This document shows, piece after piece, positions 9,682 through 45,515 of a stretch of 64,000 nt of DNA (position 1 is the first letter of the stretch; every line of letters starts with the position of its first letter). This DNA comes from Bacteroidales bacterium (GTDB lineage Bacteria; Bacteroidota; Bacteroidia; Bacteroidales; F082). The position numbers and the translations under genes are program-made. The notes under the pieces are model-generated. The model did no database searches. It saw nothing but the letters and a program-made list of their open reading frames with translations, and was not told where the DNA came from. Location of the stretch: the NCBI GenBank assembly GCA_016290215.1, contig JAEETH010000008.1, positions 38,690 to 102,689 on the forward strand, read 5' to 3'.

Positions 9682-10920
9682 TTAGTTACCCTCCAACTCC
9701 TTCGGATAGCAAATGAAATGCTTCACCACGGGCTGTGAGAGCACCGAGATGTTCAGCTGGTCGGAGGCTTCGCTGATGTCTTTCATCGTGCCGTCCTTGT
9801 ATAAGATGTTGATAGCCGGCTTCTTGGGATGGTAGGCGTGGTTCGATGAAACACCCTGCAACAACGCGAAATCCGCTTCCTCTTTGGTCCAGCCGTAATA
9901 CTCCGCAATCTTATTTCTTATACCCTCGATATAATTCGAGTCAAATTCTGAGTCACGCATCTCGATTCTGAACAAATGTCTGTCCGTCAGCCGCCTGCAT
10001 AGTTCAGAAAGGACGCGATCCTCGTCGTCGCACCAAACTTTCACTGCCGTCATCACGTCGAAGTCGTCGAGCTGGCAGAACTTGTCCAAGACGAAGTCGG
10101 GGTTGCCGTCTTCGAAGGGATGTTGGTGTTTCAGGAAGAACGACAGGGCTGGGGTGGCAAACAGGTCACGCTCCTGGCTGAGCATCTTGGCCCTCTTCAG
10201 GATGTTGCGCAGCATGTACTCGGCACTCAGCACCGCCTTGTGCATATACACCTGCCAATACATGATGCGGCGCGCCACGATGAAACTTTCCACGGAATAG
10301 ATGCCTTTGGCCTCGATGGCGAGTTCGTTGCCGACTACTTCCATCATCTCCAACAAACGCTCGGCATTCACGCTGCCCTCGGCTACGCCGGTGAAGAAGC
10401 TGTCGCGCTTCAGGTAGTCGATGCGGTCGACGTCCAACTGGCTGGAAATGAGTTTGGTGAGGAAGCCTTTTTCATATTCTCCCTTGAACATTTGGGTGGC
10501 CATGTCGAGTCGCCCGCCATGGATTTTGTTGAGCTTCTGCATTACCATCAGCGAGAGTTCCTCGTGCGAGATGCCTTGCACTATGCTATTCTCCAAGGTG
10601 TGCGAAAACGGCCCGTGACCGCTGTCGTGGAGCAGGATGGCCAACGAGGCGGCTTCAAACTCCTCATCCGTAACTTCATAGCCCTTGCCTCGCAGTAGCT
10701 GAATGGCACGCCGCATGAGGTGCATGGTGCCGAGGCTGTGGGCGAAACGCGTGTGGTTGGCACCCGGATACACCAAGTTGGTCATGCTGACTTGCTTGAT
10801 GCGTCTAAGGCGCTGGAAATAAGGGTGTTCGATGATGTCGAAATGCAACTCGTCGGGGATGCTGACGAAGCCATAGATAGGGTCGTTGAAGATTTTCTTT
10901 TTGTTGGAGGAATTGGCCAT
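9682..10920 (-). CDS. HD-domain phosphohydrolase (dGTPase-like)
   Basis: This 412-residue protein opens with KIFNDPIYGFVSIP and carries the HD-domain metal ligands in NHTRFAHSLG (His61) and LLHDSGHGPFSH (His98-Asp99), with a further Asp in DVDRIDYLKRD. It matches the YwfO-type HD proteins related to dGTP triphosphohydrolases. The ATG at 10920 is chosen because a -7 box sits at 10939-10946. A longer frame to 11112 is translated repeat DNA (copy A). Confidence 0.88.
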   Translation of the reverse strand: MANSSNKKKIFNDPIYGFVSIPDELHFDIIEHPYFQRLRRIKQVSMTNLVYPGANHTRFAHSLGTMHLMRRAIQLLRGKGYEVTDEEFEAASLAILLHDSGHGPFSHTLENSIVQGISHEELSLMVMQKLNKIHGGRLDMATQMFKGEYEKGFLTKLISSQLDVDRIDYLKRDSFFTGVAEGSVNAERLLEMMEVVGNELAIEAKGIYSVESFIVARRIMYWQVYMHKAVLSAEYMLRNILKRAKMLSQERDLFATPALSFFLKHQHPFEDGNPDFVLDKFCQLDDFDVMTAVKVWCDDEDRVLSELCRRLTDRHLFRIEMRDSEFDSNYIEGIRNKIAEYYGWTKEEADFALLQGVSSNHAYHPKKPAINILYKDGTMKDISEASDQLNISVLSQPVVKHFICYPKELEGN

Positions 10921-10938
10921 GTAGAGCGAAATTTGCCG

Positions 10939-10946
10939 CAAAGGTA
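10939..10946 (-). promoter_or_regulatory. -7 box for the HD-domain gene
   Basis: The minus strand reads TACCTTTG (TAnnTTTG), 18 bp upstream of the ATG at 10920. It argues against the longer start inside the repeat region. Confidence 0.6.
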
Positions 10947-10983
10947 ATGCTTTTTTCGTAAAGTATGACGCCTTAGGGTTGCA

Positions 10984-11053
10984 GGCCTCAACAGGTATGT
11001 CATCCCCAGGAAGGCTGGTGGGCAAAGGCAAGGGATCTATAGCTGTTGAGGCC
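10984..11053 (+). repeat. Palindromic element copy A
   Basis: A 70-bp element with perfect 11-bp arms GGCCTCAACAG / CTGTTGAGGCC. Between them lies the family core TATGTCATCCCC...GGGATCTATA. Its arms match copy C but no other copy. Confidence 0.9.
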
Positions 11054-11082
11054 GTCATGCTAAGGTTATTCCCCTTTGCGCA

Positions 11083-11138
11083 GCCTCCCATAAGATTCCC
11101 GCTCACGCACACGCCTGCGTTGGAATGACATGGGAGGC
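11083..11138 (-). repeat. Palindromic element copy B
   Basis: The element lies in the opposite orientation to A, with perfect 9-bp arms GCCTCCCAT / ATGGGAGGC. The core on the minus strand is ATGTCATTCC...GGGAATCTTAT. Confidence 0.85.
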
Positions 11139-11168
11139 TGGTATCGACCTCTTATTACAGTTGTTGCA

Positions 11169-11238
11169 GGCCTCAACAGGTATGTCATCCCCAGGCAGGC
11201 TGGTGGGTAAAGGCATGGGATCTATAGCTGTTGAGGCC
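11169..11238 (+). repeat. Palindromic element copy C
   Basis: A second 70-bp copy with the same GGCCTCAACAG / CTGTTGAGGCC arms as copy A and a few internal base differences. It arose by the tandem duplication at 10981-11337. Confidence 0.9.
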
Positions 11239-11271
11239 GTCATCTTGAGGTTTTTACCTTTTGCACCGTAT

Positions 11272-11318
11272 CCCATAGATTCCCGCTTACCCACTTGCCT
11301 ACGCAGGAATGACATGGG
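11272..11318 (-). repeat. Palindromic element copy D, arms eroded
   Basis: This is the counterpart of copy B in the second unit. The core is kept on the minus strand (ATGTCATTCC...GGGAATCTATGGG). The arms are reduced to about 5 bp (CCCAT / ATGGG). Confidence 0.75.
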
Positions 11319-11368
11319 CGGCTGGTTTTGACCTCTCAAAAAAGTTCATCCTTTCAAAACAAATTGCT

Positions 11369-11376
11369 TATTTTTG
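11369..11376 (+). promoter_or_regulatory. -7 box upstream of porX
   Basis: TATTTTTG matches TAnnTTTG and lies 27 bp before the porX ATG. An in-frame TTG at 11374 overlaps this box, so it cannot be the start. Confidence 0.6.
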
Positions 11377-11403
11377 CGTTACCTCCATATAAACACACAA
11401 ACT

Positions 11404-12957
11404 ATGGACAAAACCACCATCCTTTGGGCCGACGATGAGATTGACCTCCTGAAGCCCCATATCATGTTTTTGGAACGGAAAGGCTATGAGGTAGTTACGG
11501 CCAATAATGGTTCCGATGCCATCGACCTCGTGCGCCAACGCCATTTCGACATCGTATTTTTGGACGAACAGATGCCTGGCATTTCTGGAATCGAAGCCCT
11601 CGAAGTCATCAAACGAGAATACCCTAACTTGCCCGTGGTGATGATTACCAAGAGTGAGGAAGAACGTATTATGGAAGACGCCATCGGCTCTAACATAGCG
11701 GATTACCTCATTAAACCCGTCAACCCGAACCAAATCCTGCTTTCGCTGAAACGCAACCTTGAGAACAAGAAACTCCGCGACGAGAAGTCGACGATGGGCT
11801 ACCAGCAGGAGTTCCGTCAAATCAGCATGGACCTCAACAACAACCTGAACTTTGATGAGTGGGTTGACCTTTATAAGAAATTGGTACGCTGGGAGTTGGA
11901 ACTGCAAAAATCGACCGACGAGGGTATCAAAGGCATCCTTGCCGACCAGAAACAAGAGGCCAACACGCAGTTCACACGCTATATCGAGCGTAACTATGTG
12001 GATTGGATCCAAGGCAAGTCGGAGAAACCCGTCATGTCGCATACCGTGGTGCGCGACAAGGTGATTCCTCGCCTTGACGACAGCGACAAACCGCTGTTCC
12101 TCATCGTCATCGACAACCTGCGCTACGACCAATGGAAAGCCATCCAGCCGTTGATTGAGACTTATTTCCGCGTGGAGGCCGACGACATCTATTACAGTAT
12201 CTTGCCCACTACCACGCAGTACGCCCGCAATTCACTCTTTGCGGGACTGATGCCACTCGAAATCCGCCGCCGCTACCGCCAATGGTGGGTCGACGAGGAC
12301 GAGGAAGGCACCAAAAATCAATTCGAGGGCGAACTGCTTGGCGAGCAACTGAAGCGATTCGGCAAGAACATCAAGTACTCTTATAATAAGGTGTTGAACT
12401 TTCAAGCAGGCAAGAAGCTCTTCGAGCAGATGGCCAACCTGATGCCTAACAAGCTGAATGTCATTGTGTACAACTTCGTCGATATGCTCTCTCACGCCCG
12501 CACCGAGATGGAAATCATCCGTGAGCTGGCCGACGACGAGGAAGCCTACCGTTCGCTGATGTACTCGTGGTTCGAGCATTCCAGCCTCTTTGACATGATG
12601 CGTTTCATCGCCGAAAAGGGCTGCGACATGATTATCACCACTGACCACGGTTCCACCTACGTCGAAAAACCTGTCCGCATCCTTGGCGACCGCGAGGTGA
12701 ACACCAACCTGCGCTACAAGTATGGTAAGAACCTGAAATACACCCCGAAAGAAGTCTTCGAGGTGAAAGACCCGGAGAAGATTTTCCTGCCGAAGGCCAA
12801 TCTCAGCACGACCTTCGTTTTTGCCGGCGAGAGCGACTTCTTCGCCTACCCGAACAACTACAACTATTACGTCAGTTATTACCGCAACACCTTCCAGCAC
12901 GGCGGCATCTCGATGAGTGAAATGCTGATTCCAGTGACGCACCTCACGGCGAAATGA
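11404..12957 (+). CDS. porX: T9SS regulator PorX: response regulator with PglZ-type effector domain
   Basis: The 517-residue protein has a receiver domain (about 1-120) with the acidic pair Asp10-Asp11, phospho-acceptor Asp54 in FLDEQMPG and Lys104 in YLIKPV. A helical linker follows, and then a PglZ/alkaline-phosphatase-like domain (FLIVIDNLRYDQW; ITTDHGS near residue 420). This architecture is PorX, the cytoplasmic regulator that with PorY and SigP controls type IX secretion in Porphyromonas gingivalis. The ATG at 11404 follows the -7 box. It fits with the DUF4835 gene and the T9SS-sorted peptidase in the window. Confidence 0.93.
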   Translation: MDKTTILWADDEIDLLKPHIMFLERKGYEVVTANNGSDAIDLVRQRHFDIVFLDEQMPGISGIEALEVIKREYPNLPVVMITKSEEERIMEDAIGSNIADYLIKPVNPNQILLSLKRNLENKKLRDEKSTMGYQQEFRQISMDLNNNLNFDEWVDLYKKLVRWELELQKSTDEGIKGILADQKQEANTQFTRYIERNYVDWIQGKSEKPVMSHTVVRDKVIPRLDDSDKPLFLIVIDNLRYDQWKAIQPLIETYFRVEADDIYYSILPTTTQYARNSLFAGLMPLEIRRRYRQWWVDEDEEGTKNQFEGELLGEQLKRFGKNIKYSYNKVLNFQAGKKLFEQMANLMPNKLNVIVYNFVDMLSHARTEMEIIRELADDEEAYRSLMYSWFEHSSLFDMMRFIAEKGCDMIITTDHGSTYVEKPVRILGDREVNTNLRYKYGKNLKYTPKEVFEVKDPEKIFLPKANLSTTFVFAGESDFFAYPNNYNYYVSYYRNTFQHGGISMSEMLIPVTHLTAK

Positions 12958-12966
12958 TTGTTTGGG

Positions 12967-13055
12967 CACGCAGAATTCGCAGAATTATATGAAGCGCAAA
13001 AGCGAAAAATAATATGCGTCCGAAAAGCTTCTGCGATTTCTGCGGATTCTGCGTG
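12967..13055. repeat. Long hairpin of GCAGAATT-type words between porX and tsaE
   Basis: The 18-bp arms 12967-12984 and 13038-13055 match at 17 of 18 positions. A second stem (GAAGC 12991-12995 with GCTTC 13027-13031) lies inside. It begins 9 bp after the porX stop and ends 12 bp before the tsaE -7 box. It may work as a boundary hairpin, but the word-repeat style resembles dispersed Bacteroidetes palindromes. Confidence 0.75.
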
Positions 13056-13067
13056 AAACAAAATCAC

Positions 13068-13075
13068 TATCTTTG
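13068..13075 (+). promoter_or_regulatory. -7 box upstream of tsaE
   Basis: TATCTTTG matches TAnnTTTG and lies 18 bp before the tsaE ATG at 13094. It probably drives tsaE-aroB-aroA, whose coding regions overlap. Confidence 0.6.
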
Positions 13076-13093
13076 CGGCGAAAAACGTTTGCC

Positions 13094-13531
13094 ATGAAGG
13101 ATAAACAATTCAAAATAAGCAATGTGGAAGCCTTGGGCGAGGTCTCCGAATACCTGATTTCCCTGCGTGAGGAGGCCGACATCATAGCCTTTTACGGTTC
13201 AATGGGTGCGGGCAAGACCACGCTCATCAAGAATCTCTGCCACAAAATGGGTGTCACTGATGAGGTGAACAGCCCGACTTTTGCTATCGTCAATGAGTAC
13301 ATTACTGAGAAAGGAGAGTCGGTCTATCATTTTGATTTCTATCGTATTAAGAAATTGGAAGAGGCCTACGACATAGGCTATGAGAACTATTTCGACAGCG
13401 GTAACCTCTGCCTCATCGAGTGGCCCGAAATGATTGAACCATTGCTGCCCGAAAAGTATATTCGCGTGGAAATTCAGCATGGTGAAATGGATGATGAAAG
13501 GTTGATTCATTGTCAAGTAGTCGAAGAATGA
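13094..13531 (+). CDS. tsaE: tRNA t6A biosynthesis ATPase TsaE
   Basis: The 145-residue protein has Walker A GSMGAGKT (residues 35-42), then VNSPTFAIVNEY and YHFDFYRI, and NLCLIEWPE, all typical of TsaE. It partners TsaB and TsaD in making threonylcarbamoyladenosine at tRNA position 37. The ATG at 13094 follows a -7 box; an in-frame TTG at 13073 lies within that box. The stop codon overlaps the aroB start (ATGA). Confidence 0.93.
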   Translation: MKDKQFKISNVEALGEVSEYLISLREEADIIAFYGSMGAGKTTLIKNLCHKMGVTDEVNSPTFAIVNEYITEKGESVYHFDFYRIKKLEEAYDIGYENYFDSGNLCLIEWPEMIEPLLPEKYIRVEIQHGEMDDERLIHCQVVEE

Positions 13532-14649
13532 GAAAAATGATGGACATGGCCCTAACCTCAGAAAGCATAGATTCCCACCAACGCACTGGTCAACCTTGGA
13601 ATGACATGCTTCCTGAAGCCTTAGAAAGTATGTCATCCCCGCGTGAGGAGGTGCGGGGTATGGGATCTATACTTTCTAAGGTTTCTCAAGTCTTCATCCT
13701 CACCGATGAAAACGTAGCCCCGTTTTGGCTGCCCGAAGTAGAGTATGGGTTGAAATGCGAAAAAGCTGTTGAAATTGTCATCAAGCCTGGCGAACAGCAC
13801 AAAAACCTGCAAACCGTCCAACGTATCTGGAAAATCTTGATGAAGCATCATGCCGACCGGAACTCCTTGCTAGTTAACCTCGGTGGTGGAGTAATCACCG
13901 ACTTGGGAGGTTTTGCGGCCTCGACTTACAAACGTGGCATCAAGTTCATCAACGTACCCACGACTTTGTTGGCTATGGTGGATGCGGCAATAGGAGGGAA
14001 GACAGGCATTGATTTTGGTGGCGCGAAAAACCAGATTGGCACCTTCGCTGAGGCTGAGGATGTGTTGGTTGACCCTGTGTTTTTGTCGACTTTGCCCCGA
14101 AGGGAAATCCTCTCTGGCTTGGCTGAAATGCTGAAGTATGGTTTTGTCGCTGATGCTGACTTGTTGAAATCCAATTTGAAAGACTATCAGCAATACATCA
14201 GTCGTGCAGGTGAAATCAAACGCGAAATAGTTGCAAAAGACCCTATGGAAAATGGTTTACGCAAAATTTTGAATTTTGGCCATACCTTAGGCCATGCCAT
14301 CGAAAGCCATTGTTTGACAATAGATTATCCCTTGCTTCACGGCGAGGCAGTGGCATTGGGTATGGCTGGAGCTTTATGGCTATCTGTGAAACGATGTGGC
14401 CTTGATGAAAAAGTTCTGAAAGATTTCGAGAAAAAGCTACTCGTGTTGCTTTCGGAAACGGAAATCGCTTTTGCCGATGCCGATGTCGAATCTGTCATGG
14501 GTTATCTTGCTCACGATAAGAAAAACCAAGGAGACAAGCCGCAATTTGTGTTGCTTGAGGCCATAGGAAATCCTGTTTGGAATGTGGAAGTGGAGCCAGA
14601 TTTGGTGAAAGCATCTTTGTTATATATTATTAAGGTGTCACGTCGATGA
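13528..14649 (+). CDS. aroB: 3-dehydroquinate synthase with two palindromic elements in its N-terminus
   Basis: The protein is AroB, the second shikimate-pathway enzyme: NLGGGVITDLGGFAAS, VPTTLLAMVDAAIGGKTGID, KNQIGTF, LAEMLKYG and the metal-binding HTLGHAIE and HGEAVALGM segments. From the ATG at 13528 (overlapping the tsaE stop) it has 373 residues. The first 45 or so are unlike AroB: they are the translation of two repeat copies (13556-13618 and 13619-13681). Normal homology resumes at VFILTDENV. An in-frame ATG at 13660, inside the second copy and preceded by AGGAGG at 13646-13651, could be the working start. Confidence 0.92.
   Translation: MRKMMDMALTSESIDSHQRTGQPWNDMLPEALESMSSPREEVRGMGSILSKVSQVFILTDENVAPFWLPEVEYGLKCEKAVEIVIKPGEQHKNLQTVQRIWKILMKHHADRNSLLVNLGGGVITDLGGFAASTYKRGIKFINVPTTLLAMVDAAIGGKTGIDFGGAKNQIGTFAEAEDVLVDPVFLSTLPRREILSGLAEMLKYGFVADADLLKSNLKDYQQYISRAGEIKREIVAKDPMENGLRKILNFGHTLGHAIESHCLTIDYPLLHGEAVALGMAGALWLSVKRCGLDEKVLKDFEKKLLVLLSETEIAFADADVESVMGYLAHDKKNQGDKPQFVLLEAIGNPVWNVEVEPDLVKASLLYIIKVSRR
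13556..13618 (-). repeat. Palindromic element inside aroB, copy 1
   Basis: Core on the minus strand is ATGTCATTCC...GGGAATCTATGC. Arms CCTCAGAAAGCAT / ATGCTTCCTGAAG match at 11 of 13 positions. In the aroB frame it reads SIDS..RT...WNDM, the same frame and near-identical peptide as the aroA copy. Confidence 0.88.
13619..13681 (+). repeat. Palindromic element inside aroB, copy 2
   Basis: It directly abuts copy 1 in opposite orientation. It has perfect 13-bp arms CCTTAGAAAGTAT / ATACTTTCTAAGG around core GTCATCCCC...GGGATCT. Its arms are variants of the copy 1 arms (CCTYAGAAAG), though the cores differ. It contributes an AGGAGG and an in-frame ATG (13660) to aroB. Confidence 0.92.
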
Positions 14650-15878
14650 AATTGTACTGCGACATCACCTTACCCGCCAGCAAAAGCGAAAGCAATCGCG
14701 CCTTGATGATTGCGGCGTATGGTGGATTTGCTCATGATTTCCAGAATCTGTCGGATTCTAAGGATACTAAAGTGCTGTATGAAGCTTTAGTAAGCATAGA
14801 TTCCATGCCCCGCACTGTCCCATGCTGGAATGACATGCATACTAAAGCTTCATTCATTGACATTGCTGATTGCGGTACTGCGGCCCGTTTCATGGCCACC
14901 TATTTGGCCTGCCATCCTGGCGATTGGCTTCTGACAGGAACGGAACGGATGCAACAACGCCCGATGGCTCCTTTGGTAGACGCATTGAGGTCTTTGGGCT
15001 CCGACATTCAATATGTTGAAAACGAAGGTTGTCTTCCTCTGAGAATCAAAGGAAATCCTGTTGCGGGTGGGAAGATTTCGGTGGATATGACACAAAGCAG
15101 TCAATTTGCCTCATCTTTGCTGTTGGCTTCACCAATGTTTTCGCAAGGTCTTGAAATGGAGCTGCTTGGCGAACTCAGTTCCTTGCCATATCTCGATATG
15201 ACCATTGCTATGCAGCGACACTTTTTTGCACAGGTGGAAAGACAAGGCCGGATGGTCGTCGTGAAGCCCCAGCCTTACCAGCCACGACCTTTTTCGGTCG
15301 AACCCGATTGGAGCGCGGCTTCCTATTGGTACGAAATGGCGGCTTTGAGTGAGGATTGTGAGATTAGATTGTATGGGTTGGGCGGCCCGTCGTCCCATCG
15401 GCCCTTCGACGGGCTCAGGGGCCGTAGGGTTTCACGGACCACATGCCTTCAAGGTGATGCCGTCATTGCTGAATGGATGCAGCAATTGGGCGTCGGTACG
15501 TTCGTTGATGGGAATGACGTCGTTTTGAGGAAGATACCTTTTGAAAAACGTCCCCTGCATTTCGATTTTTCCTTCAATCCTGACCTTTATCCTACCATGG
15601 TTGCCACATGTGCCGGTTTGAATGTAGAAGCCACTTTTACCGGCCTTGACAATCTTGCTCTCAAAGAGTCGGATAGGGTGAGAGCCATGCAGAAGGAATT
15701 GGCCAAGTTGGGTAAACCATCACTACATTTTTGCGCCCATAACGATCATCGCATCGTCATGGCCTTAGCACCACTCGCATTGCTCTATGGCCCAGTCACT
15801 TTCGACTATCCCGAGGTGGTTGAAAAATCCTACCCAAACTATTGGATAGATGCTTCATTTTTACCCGTTAATAGGTGA
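14646..15878 (+). CDS. aroA: 5-enolpyruvylshikimate-3-phosphate synthase with two in-frame insertions
   Basis: The 410-residue protein is AroA: LPASKSESNRALMI, DCGTAARF, TGTERMQQRP, QSSQFASSLLLASP, DWSAASYWYEMAALS, LKESDRV, HNDHRIVMALA and the C-terminal EVVEKSYPNYW. It makes EPSP in the shikimate pathway and starts inside the aroB stop (ATGA). Two segments do not belong to the family: about 15-20 extra residues between KVLYEAL and FIDIADCG from the element at 14780-14852, and about 17-20 extra after LYGLGG from a second repeat family at 15399-15424. Both keep the frame. The active-site motifs I can check are intact, so the enzyme may still work. Confidence 0.93.
   Translation: MKLYCDITLPASKSESNRALMIAAYGGFAHDFQNLSDSKDTKVLYEALVSIDSMPRTVPCWNDMHTKASFIDIADCGTAARFMATYLACHPGDWLLTGTERMQQRPMAPLVDALRSLGSDIQYVENEGCLPLRIKGNPVAGGKISVDMTQSSQFASSLLLASPMFSQGLEMELLGELSSLPYLDMTIAMQRHFFAQVERQGRMVVVKPQPYQPRPFSVEPDWSAASYWYEMAALSEDCEIRLYGLGGPSSHRPFDGLRGRRVSRTTCLQGDAVIAEWMQQLGVGTFVDGNDVVLRKIPFEKRPLHFDFSFNPDLYPTMVATCAGLNVEATFTGLDNLALKESDRVRAMQKELAKLGKPSLHFCAHNDHRIVMALAPLALLYGPVTFDYPEVVEKSYPNYWIDASFLPVNR
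14780..14852 (-). repeat. Palindromic element inside aroA
   Basis: A 73-bp element with perfect 13-bp arms TGAAGCTTTAGTA / TACTAAAGCTTCA and minus-strand core ATGTCATTCC...GGAATCTATG. The arms are unique to this locus. In frame it encodes SIDSMPRT..CWNDM between two conserved AroA blocks. Confidence 0.93.
15399..15424. repeat. CCTTCGACGGGCTCAGG repeat inside aroA
   Basis: Arms CGGCCC / GGGCCG flank the TTCGACGGGCTCAG core. The same core occurs at 4871-4887 and, split, at 16681-16730. It encodes RPFDGLRGR within a stretch that AroA proteins normally lack. The inserted segment probably extends beyond the palindrome on both sides. Confidence 0.8.
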
Positions 15879-45448: not shown

Positions 45449-45515
45449 GGGTACAATAAGAATTTAAACAACTGAAAAATGAATGTTTAACTAAAATAGC
45501 AAAAAACTCTAGTTT

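What the first reader, a model, noticed from the sequence alone, without database searches (positions are those of the whole stretch)
10984..14852. Palindromic element family with a shared core but locus-specific inverted arms
At least seven copies share the core ATGTCATYCC...GGRATCTAT, yet their outer inverted repeats differ by locus: GGCCTCAACAG (A and C), GCCTCCCAT (B), a CCTYAGAAAG type (both aroB copies), TGAAGCTTTAGTA (aroA). Four copies have perfect 11- or 13-bp arms and B a perfect 9-bp arm. The two aroB copies have different cores and opposite orientation but variants of one arm. Ordinary MITEs carry the same ends everywhere. Here the arms look as if they were copied from, or made to match, the target. 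The core resembles GTCATTCC...GGAATC repeats known in other phyla (for example Neisseria dRS3-type ATTCCC-N-GGGAAT). Arms that follow the locus suggest an unusual spread or repair mechanism.
Basis: partly seen in the sequence, partly recalled or inferred. Interest (0 to 1): 0.8.

Follow-up and report, generated by a model that had tools for sequence, protein, structure and literature searches.

The report
Palindromic repeats with self-matching arms
A bacterium with relatives in ruminant guts carries dozens of short hairpin-forming DNA repeats, some inside essential genes, whose two arms differ from place to place yet stay matched to each other, probably because DNA copying keeps rewriting one arm from the other.

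Summary
The window has seven copies; the genome has 68 exact-pattern copies of a TGTC-tagged core and none of the reversed pattern. Each copy's arms pair with each other, not with other copies' arms: 59 of 68 have 5 or more perfect pairs, against 6% after swapping flanks.

Arms are not simply copied from the target: 49 of 68 share most of a left arm with another copy, and pairing drops to background after 13 bp. At the two coding sites read closely, none of 6 and 18 empty orthologues holds the second arm. At six orthologous coding sites the arms change together: 125 double changes on the same branch and position, 38 expected. At one site an 86-bp nested core is inverted between similar arms.

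I read this as a long-loop, outer-stemmed variant of CGTC/TGTC REP palindromes, whose arms are homogenised and cores flipped in place by hairpin template switching. How copies reach new sites is unknown; no Y1-transposase neighbour was found in 24 loci. At three of six coding sites other species carry other palindromic repeats. In AroA the insert is a low-confidence loop.

The parts
10984..11053 (+). copy A, 13-bp-stem type; core 10997-11040; arms 10984-10994 / 11043-11053
   Evidence: z -4.8
11081..11140 (-). copy B (CAGCCTCCC..GGGAGGCTG); core has one extra A; faces copy A with tags outward
   Evidence: z -5.4
11169..11238 (+). copy C, same arms as A; core 11182-11225
   Evidence: z -4.4
11272..11318 (-). 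copy D, core 11275-11315 intact, arms decayed to 3 bp; faces copy C with tags outward
   Evidence: z 0.0
13557..13620 (-). aroB copy 1, near the 5' end of the aroB reading frame; core 13567-13607; imperfect arms
   Evidence: z -0.7
13615..13685 (+). aroB copy 2, in frame; core 13630-13670; arms CCTTAGAAAGT / ACTTTCTAAGG
   Evidence: z -7.5
14776..14856 (-). aroA copy, in frame; core 14796-14836; arms GAAGCTTTAGTA / TACTAAAGCTTC
   Evidence: (z -6.9)
13510..14649 (+). aroB (3-dehydroquinate synthase), host of two copies; start codon uncertain
   Evidence: PF01761 E 6.5e-46
14646..15878 (+). aroA (EPSP synthase), host of one copy
   Evidence: (PF00275 E 5.8e-60)

Best explanation
These are copies of a short palindromic repeat of the CGTC/TGTC-tagged REP kind (core AT-GTC-ATNCC, loop, GGNAT-CTA-T). 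Each is wrapped in an extra outer stem of about 7 or about 13 bp that mostly belongs to the element. The imperfect palindrome lets a nascent DNA strand fold back during replication, so that one arm is copied onto the other (arm homogenisation) and the core is sometimes flipped (spacer inversion). The arms of each copy therefore drift together, may take up bordering host bases, and end up matched to each other but different from locus to locus. Shown: the shared core, private arm matching, joint arm changes at orthologous sites, an inverted nested core at one site, and in-frame insertions. Inferred: template switching as the cause. Unknown: the enzyme or route that spreads copies to new sites.
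For: Private arm matching: 68 copies; 57 copies in a second genome. Within one orthologous site, own partners pair better than partners swapped between species: 0 of 5000 permutations reach the observed value at radSAM, FADox and aroA, and 11 of 5000 at L079b. Joint change on host-gene trees over six sites: 222 left and 257 right changes, 125 at the same branch and position against 38 expected, 88 of them Watson-Crick to Watson-Crick. In two species 94.2% identical over 14 kb, aroB copy 2 differs at three positions of its 15-bp stem and all three are compensated in the other arm. Core inversions: at radSAM an 86-bp nested block is inverted between similar outer arms (16-20 of 24 bases alike; inverted identity 0.92-0.93, direct 0.70-0.71); at aroA, G000 and G029 have identical arms (24 of 24) and inverted core identity 0.90 against 0.61 direct; at L079b 0.93 against 0.68 with arms alike at 15 of 24. 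No G-T excess over A-C mismatches on the mRNA strand at four coding sites (20 against 26). PMC8604942 (abstract read) names arm homogenisation and spacer inversion as results of template switching between inverted repeats; PMC8794818 (abstract and opening text read) names stem creation and multi-base compensatory change.
Against: The sharp end of pairing at 13 bp, with conserved CA and GTC bases just outside in copies of that type, points to a fixed element with a maintained stem, which selection would also give. In G000, G-T exceeds A-C on the core strand in the first seven pairs (23 against 6), which fits RNA pairing, though copies are related. The aroA and L079b inversions are weak alone: unrelated 41-nt cores already average 0.79 identity, 95th percentile 0.88. 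Some aroA loci carry wholly different arm types, which suggests repeated insertion or replacement rather than drift, and this inflates the joint-change count there. aroB copy 1 shows little joint change (2 observed, 0.5 expected), and in the 94%-identical pair its arm differences are not compensated. Only one genome per species was compared, and template switching itself was not observed.
Confidence: 0.55

Rival explanations
1. Selection keeps the stem paired. A hairpin in DNA (for an unknown mobilising enzyme) or in RNA is needed, so any arm change is compensated.
For: Set stem lengths near 7 and 13 bp with conserved bases outside; covarying core-stem base (T-A 91, C-G 35, A-T 4, G-C 3, unpaired 1); G-T excess on the core strand in G000 (23 against 6).
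Against: No G-T excess on the mRNA strand at coding sites (20 against 26); three compensated changes with no intermediate seen in a 94%-identical pair; core inversions are not predicted.
Confidence: 0.25
2. One reading: on insertion one arm is the target sequence and the other an inverted copy of it.
For: GC[CT]TTGGAA is in the left arm of 8 of 24 occupied radSAM loci and in 3 of 6 empty ones; GGGAAACC in 6 of 12 occupied FADox loci and 6 of 18 empty ones; the inverted copy is in none of the 6 and 18 empty loci.
Against: Arms recur in shared classes at unrelated loci (49 of 68); the FADox arm GAAACCGACCGTCC of L337 resembles the G000 arm GAAATCGACCGTCT of L103 at 12 of 14 bases; pairing ends at a set length. 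In 11 of 24 occupied radSAM loci the net insertion is 63 bp, that is 41 plus 22, as expected for an element bringing 11 bp of arm on each side.
Confidence: 0.12
3. Arms are swapped between dispersed copies by ectopic gene conversion, giving different but matched arms at the same site.
For: Arm classes are shared between loci; aroA shows several arm types at nearly the same codon position.
Against: In aroB copy 2 the arms change while the site's core stays alike (mean core identity 0.86 among 11 species).
Confidence: 0.08

Closest known systems
CGTC-tagged REPs (Di Nocera 2013, PMC3733652; includes Neisseria dRS3 and Rickettsia RPE-4/RPE-6)
   Same: TGTC form of the tag, stem starting with AT, three bases after the stem, tags outward in most close pairs, copies inside genes in frame, no Y1-transposase neighbour found
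   Different: 5-bp core stem and long loop in place of an 8-9 bp stem and 4-5 nt loop; an added outer stem that varies by locus and changes in concert
REPs set inside palindromes with one consensus (H. neapolitanus CGTC-1, A. variabilis GTAG-15, T. roseum GTAG-23; PMC3733652)
   Same: a REP nested within a longer palindrome
   Different: there the flanking palindrome has one consensus; here it differs by copy
Template switching between inverted-repeat arms (PMC8604942, PMC8794818)
   Same: arm homogenisation, spacer inversion, multi-base paired change
   Different: the abstracts describe yeast inverted repeats and RNA genes; here it would act on a dispersed bacterial repeat family
REPIN/RAYT systems and MITEs
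   Same: short dispersed hairpins, often paired
   Different: no GTAG tag, no Y1-transposase neighbour found, no common terminal repeat

Membership tests
CGTC-tagged REP superfamily | unpaired CGTC tag (TGTC allowed) at one end | tested here: met
   TGTC in 68 of 68, but this is set by the search pattern; the test is the reversed control, 0
CGTC-tagged REP superfamily | complementary AT at the first two stem positions | tested here: met
   AT..AT is also set by the pattern; the next stem base is free and pairs in 133 of 134
CGTC-tagged REP superfamily | stem of 8-9 bp and loop of 4-5 nt | tested here: not met
   67 of 68 G000 cores are 39-45 nt long, one is 25 nt; the core stem common to all is 5 bp
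CGTC-tagged REP superfamily | three-base unpaired tail, mostly CCA | tested here: inconclusive
   a three-base CTA stands there instead, set by the pattern
CGTC-tagged REP superfamily | tags outward (head-head) predominant among close pairs | tested here: met
   13 of 20 neighbours within 100 nt; 6 tags inward, 1 tandem
CGTC-tagged REP superfamily | no associated transposase gene | tested here: inconclusive
   no core in 24 fetched Y1_Tnp neighbourhoods of 2-4.5 kb, a part of the matches in 70 of 99 genomes; other transposases not tested
REPIN/RAYT (GTAG REPs) | GTAG tag and a flanking RAYT gene | tested here: not met
   tag is TGTC; 0 of 24 Y1 loci flanked
Rickettsia palindromic elements | in-frame insertion in protein genes | tested here: met
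   11 of 68 G000 copies lie in frames open for at least 60 codons on both sides, besides aroA and aroB
Rickettsia palindromic elements | sequence kinship with an RPE family | not tested
   no RPE sequence was fetched
MITE | same terminal inverted repeats on all copies | tested here: not met
   swapped flanks mostly do not pair (5 or more pairs in 6.0%)
Template-switched inverted repeats | arm homogenisation and spacer inversion at orthologous sites | tested here: met
   the patterns are met, the cause itself was not observed
Rfam RNA families | match above gathering score | tested here: not met
   two hits far under the gathering score in window 10501-15300

The most novel reading that the evidence does not exclude
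The core is a seed of directed mutation. By folding, it makes replication rewrite the flanking arms and flip the core again and again, inside essential genes. A dispersed repeat family would then act as a standing engine of multi-codon change in protein loops, and its stems would stay paired without any selection for pairing.
Probability: 0.35. Interest if true: 0.75.

Novelty: new variant of a known kind. Interest (0 to 1): 0.52.

Why it matters
The 2013 survey (PMC3733652) leaves open how CGTC-type palindromes are mobilised. This genus gives many orthologous occupied and empty sites, so arm origin, concerted change and core flipping can be measured directly. It also shows that the same protein loops (AroA, a GH3 enzyme, and a protein without Pfam match at L094) carry different palindromic repeats in different species, which bears on how such repeats become protein parts.

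Tried and rejected
Mobilising enzyme: Y1 transposases are in 70 of 99 genus genomes; I saw no relation to copy number by eye and made no formal test. None of 24 fetched neighbourhoods holds a core. Close-species empty sites: the fetched contigs of G024/G125 and G021/G016/G132 gave no clean recent insertion; the two G021 copies near 45500 of the joined contig lie where G016 and G132 have other DNA. The empty FADox site of G024 against occupied G125 is confounded, because the two alleles differ beyond the insert. Early idea that left arms are always host codons: weakened once the arm classes and the 13-bp limit were seen. Early idea of a GG^CC target: it fits some radSAM alleles and one aroA allele by inference only, and three empty radSAM sites read AAGCC; not claimed. 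RNA function: no Rfam match above its gathering score.

Selection effects: the 30 loci per site are the best-scoring hits to a query that contained the insert, so occupied-to-empty ratios are biased. The site table counts 11 FADox loci as occupied and leaves out the decayed L339 (one search counts 12); at aroA it leaves out the decayed L109/L041/L194 and L063. Loci identical in arms and core were merged before (aroA: 51 loci to 19 rows). In one search two aroB rows (L112, L116) were in the wrong orientation; this was corrected. The joint-change test counts parsimony changes on one tree per site; no error was put on it. The 13-bp and 7-bp groups were sorted by pairing itself; only the unsorted profile is free of that.
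Full report
What is there. Between 10984 and 14856 the window holds seven copies of a palindromic repeat: A, B, C and D between genes, two near the 5' end of aroB, and one in aroA. Pfam confirms AroB and AroA. The shared core is ATGTCATYCC, a loop, then GGRATCTAT. In the window's own genome (3.80 Mb draft, 153 contigs) the exact pattern occurs 68 times and the reversed pattern never; copy B has one extra base and is not among the 68. Core lengths are 39-45 nt in 67 of 68 copies and 25 nt in one. Five of the seven window copies fold as single DNA strands at z -4.4 to -7.5; D and aroB copy 1 do not.

Who has it. The exact pattern is in 24 of 60 genomes of the same genus and in 0 of 40 from other families of the order (counted from its table). 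A looser pattern over 393 genomes of the order hits 12: 3 of 5 genus members with 20-74 hits each, and 9 of 388 others with 1-5 hits, against 3 reversed-pattern hits in all. Outside hits in G439, G441 (4 of its 5) and G379 are 29-31 nt long and look like the classical short CGTC-REP form. The closest named relatives are uncultured Bacteroidales assemblies, several with ruminants in their titles, one called bacterium F082; the genus name itself is not given by the tools.

The arms. Reading outward from the core, 59 of 68 copies have at least 5 perfect arm pairs and 22 of 68 at least 11. After pairing left flanks with right flanks of other copies these fall to 6.0% and 1.4%. In G021 the figures for 5 or more are 44 of 57 against 7.9%. 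So the arms match privately. Yet 49 of 68 copies share 10 or more of 13 left-arm bases with some other copy, against a mean of 0.7 (maximum 6) in shuffles. The unsorted pairing profile stays high to position 13 (42 of 68) and drops to 18 of 68 at position 14; G021 drops less sharply, from 28 to 18 of 57. Sorting by pairing gives 37 copies with a stem of about 13 bp, 26 with about 7 bp and 5 others in G000, and 27, 27 and 3 in G021. That sort uses positions 1-13, so only the unsorted profile is free of selection. In G000, copies of the 13-bp type also share bases just outside the stem (left A in 29 and C in 16 of 37; right G, T, C in 21, 25 and 22 of 37). The arms therefore belong to the element for the most part.

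Empty sites. For five coding sites found from G000 copies and for aroA, orthologues with and without the repeat were read. RadSAM: 24 of 30 occupied, 6 empty. FAD-oxidase: 12 of 30 occupied (one decayed), 18 empty. L079b: 22 of 30 occupied. The loci are the best hits to an insert-bearing query, so these ratios are biased. By reading, no empty radSAM or FADox locus holds the second arm. Against a general rule of target copying, the same arm types occur at unrelated loci, for example the FADox arm of L337 and the G000 arm of L103 at 12 of 14 bases. I cannot separate host take-up at insertion from later take-up.

Concerted change. At each of four orthologous sites own partners pair better than partners swapped between species: 0 of 5000 permutations reach the observed value at radSAM, FADox and aroA, 11 of 5000 at L079b. 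On trees of the host genes, over six sites, there are 222 left and 257 right arm changes; 125 fall on the same branch and position, against 38 expected if independent; [quoted passage not shown] Observed and expected by site: radSAM 9 and 2.8, L079b 40 and 14.7, FADox 17 and 3.5, aroA 48 and 15.3, aroB copy 1 2 and 0.5, aroB copy 2 9 and 1.6. Part of the aroA and L079b excess is whole-arm replacement. The clearest close case is aroB copy 2 in two species 94.2% identical over 14 kb: three differences in a 15-bp stem, all compensated. In the same pair the arm differences of aroB copy 1 are not compensated.

Core inversions. At radSAM, L285 and L290 hold an 86-bp block (one element nested in another) that is inverted in L283, L287 and L291, with inverted identity 0.92-0.93 and direct 0.70-0.71, between outer arms alike at 16-20 of 24 bases. 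At aroA, G000 and G029 have identical arms and inverted core identity 0.90 against 0.61 direct; at L079b the best pair has 0.93 against 0.68. The last two are weak alone because unrelated 41-nt cores average 0.79 (95th percentile 0.88) in the same call. Arm homogenisation and spacer inversion are together the named results of template switching between inverted repeats (PMC8604942, abstract read).

Selection or mutation. On the mRNA strand of four coding sites, mismatched arm pairs are G-T 20 and A-C 26, so there is no sign of RNA pairing. In G000 on the core strand they are 23 and 6 in the first seven pairs, which does hint at RNA pairing, with the caution that copies are related. The core-stem base after CAT covaries with its partner (T-A 91, C-G 35, A-T 4, G-C 3, T-T 1). 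Both readings remain open; I favour template switching at 0.55.

Insertion-tolerant loops. The coding copies keep the frame. In a model of the window's AroA (mean pLDDT 89.8) the stretch 57-65, inside the insert, is one of two below 50. Nearly the same codon positions carry other palindromic repeats in other species. At aroA 20 of 79 readable loci (of 81) have the TGTC core, 4 a short CGTC repeat and 1 a CCCCCTTAAAGGGGG type. At L094 6 of 30 have the TGTC core, 5 a short CGTC repeat and 15 the CCCCCTTT type. At GH3 15 of 30 have the TGTC core, 6 GAGACG..CGTCTC and 9 TGTATCCA..TGGATACA (some loci called by eye because the script's motif missed them: 3 at GH3, 2 at L094, 3 at aroA).

Comparison with the known. 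Di Nocera and co-workers (PMC3733652; parts 1-5 of 8 and passages read) describe CGTC REPs by tag, AT-initial 8-9 bp stem, 4-5 nt loop, three-base tail, head-head pairs, intragenic copies and no transposase. Tag and AT start (both set by my pattern), head-head pairs (13 of 20 close neighbours) and intragenic copies are met; no core lies by 24 Y1 genes; stem and loop size are not met. I therefore call it a variant, not a member. They report REPs inside palindromes of one consensus in three species. Locus-variable, jointly changing outer stems did not show in paper searches, of which I saw the listings and parts of the papers named here; the library holds open-licence papers only.

Noticed in passing
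window 15380-15440 (AroA residues about 246-265): A second low-confidence insertion in the same AroA holds a different palindromic repeat of the CCCTTCGACGGGCTCAGGG type.
   Followed up: partly
L283, L285, L287, L290, L291 (radSAM site); L126; G024:C1 near 114512: Elements of a second core family (ATGTCATACC..GTATCTAT) with their own arms, nested with other copies of the same or the first family.
   Followed up: partly
L365, L366, L373, L374, L385, L386 (GH3 site): GAGACG..CGTCTC hairpins at the same codons that carry the TGTC core in other species; they look like GTAG-type repeats, by recall.
   Followed up: no
L375, L377, L378, L380-L384, L387 (GH3 site): GH3 orthologues without the repeat carry a coding hairpin of the TGTATCCAAAATGGATACA type at the insertion point.
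   Followed up: no
window 10984-11327; L115 6530-6663; L118 6225-6570: The tags-outward pair (A with B, C with D) stands twice in the window and in G125 but once in G024, 94% identical to G125: the pair as a unit was duplicated or lost.
   Followed up: no
window 12967-13055: A 29-bp imperfect inverted repeat (CACGCAGAATTCGCAGAA / TTCTGCGGATTCTGCGTG) between the PglZ-domain response regulator gene and tsaE; a similar hairpin is at L120 8169.
   Followed up: no
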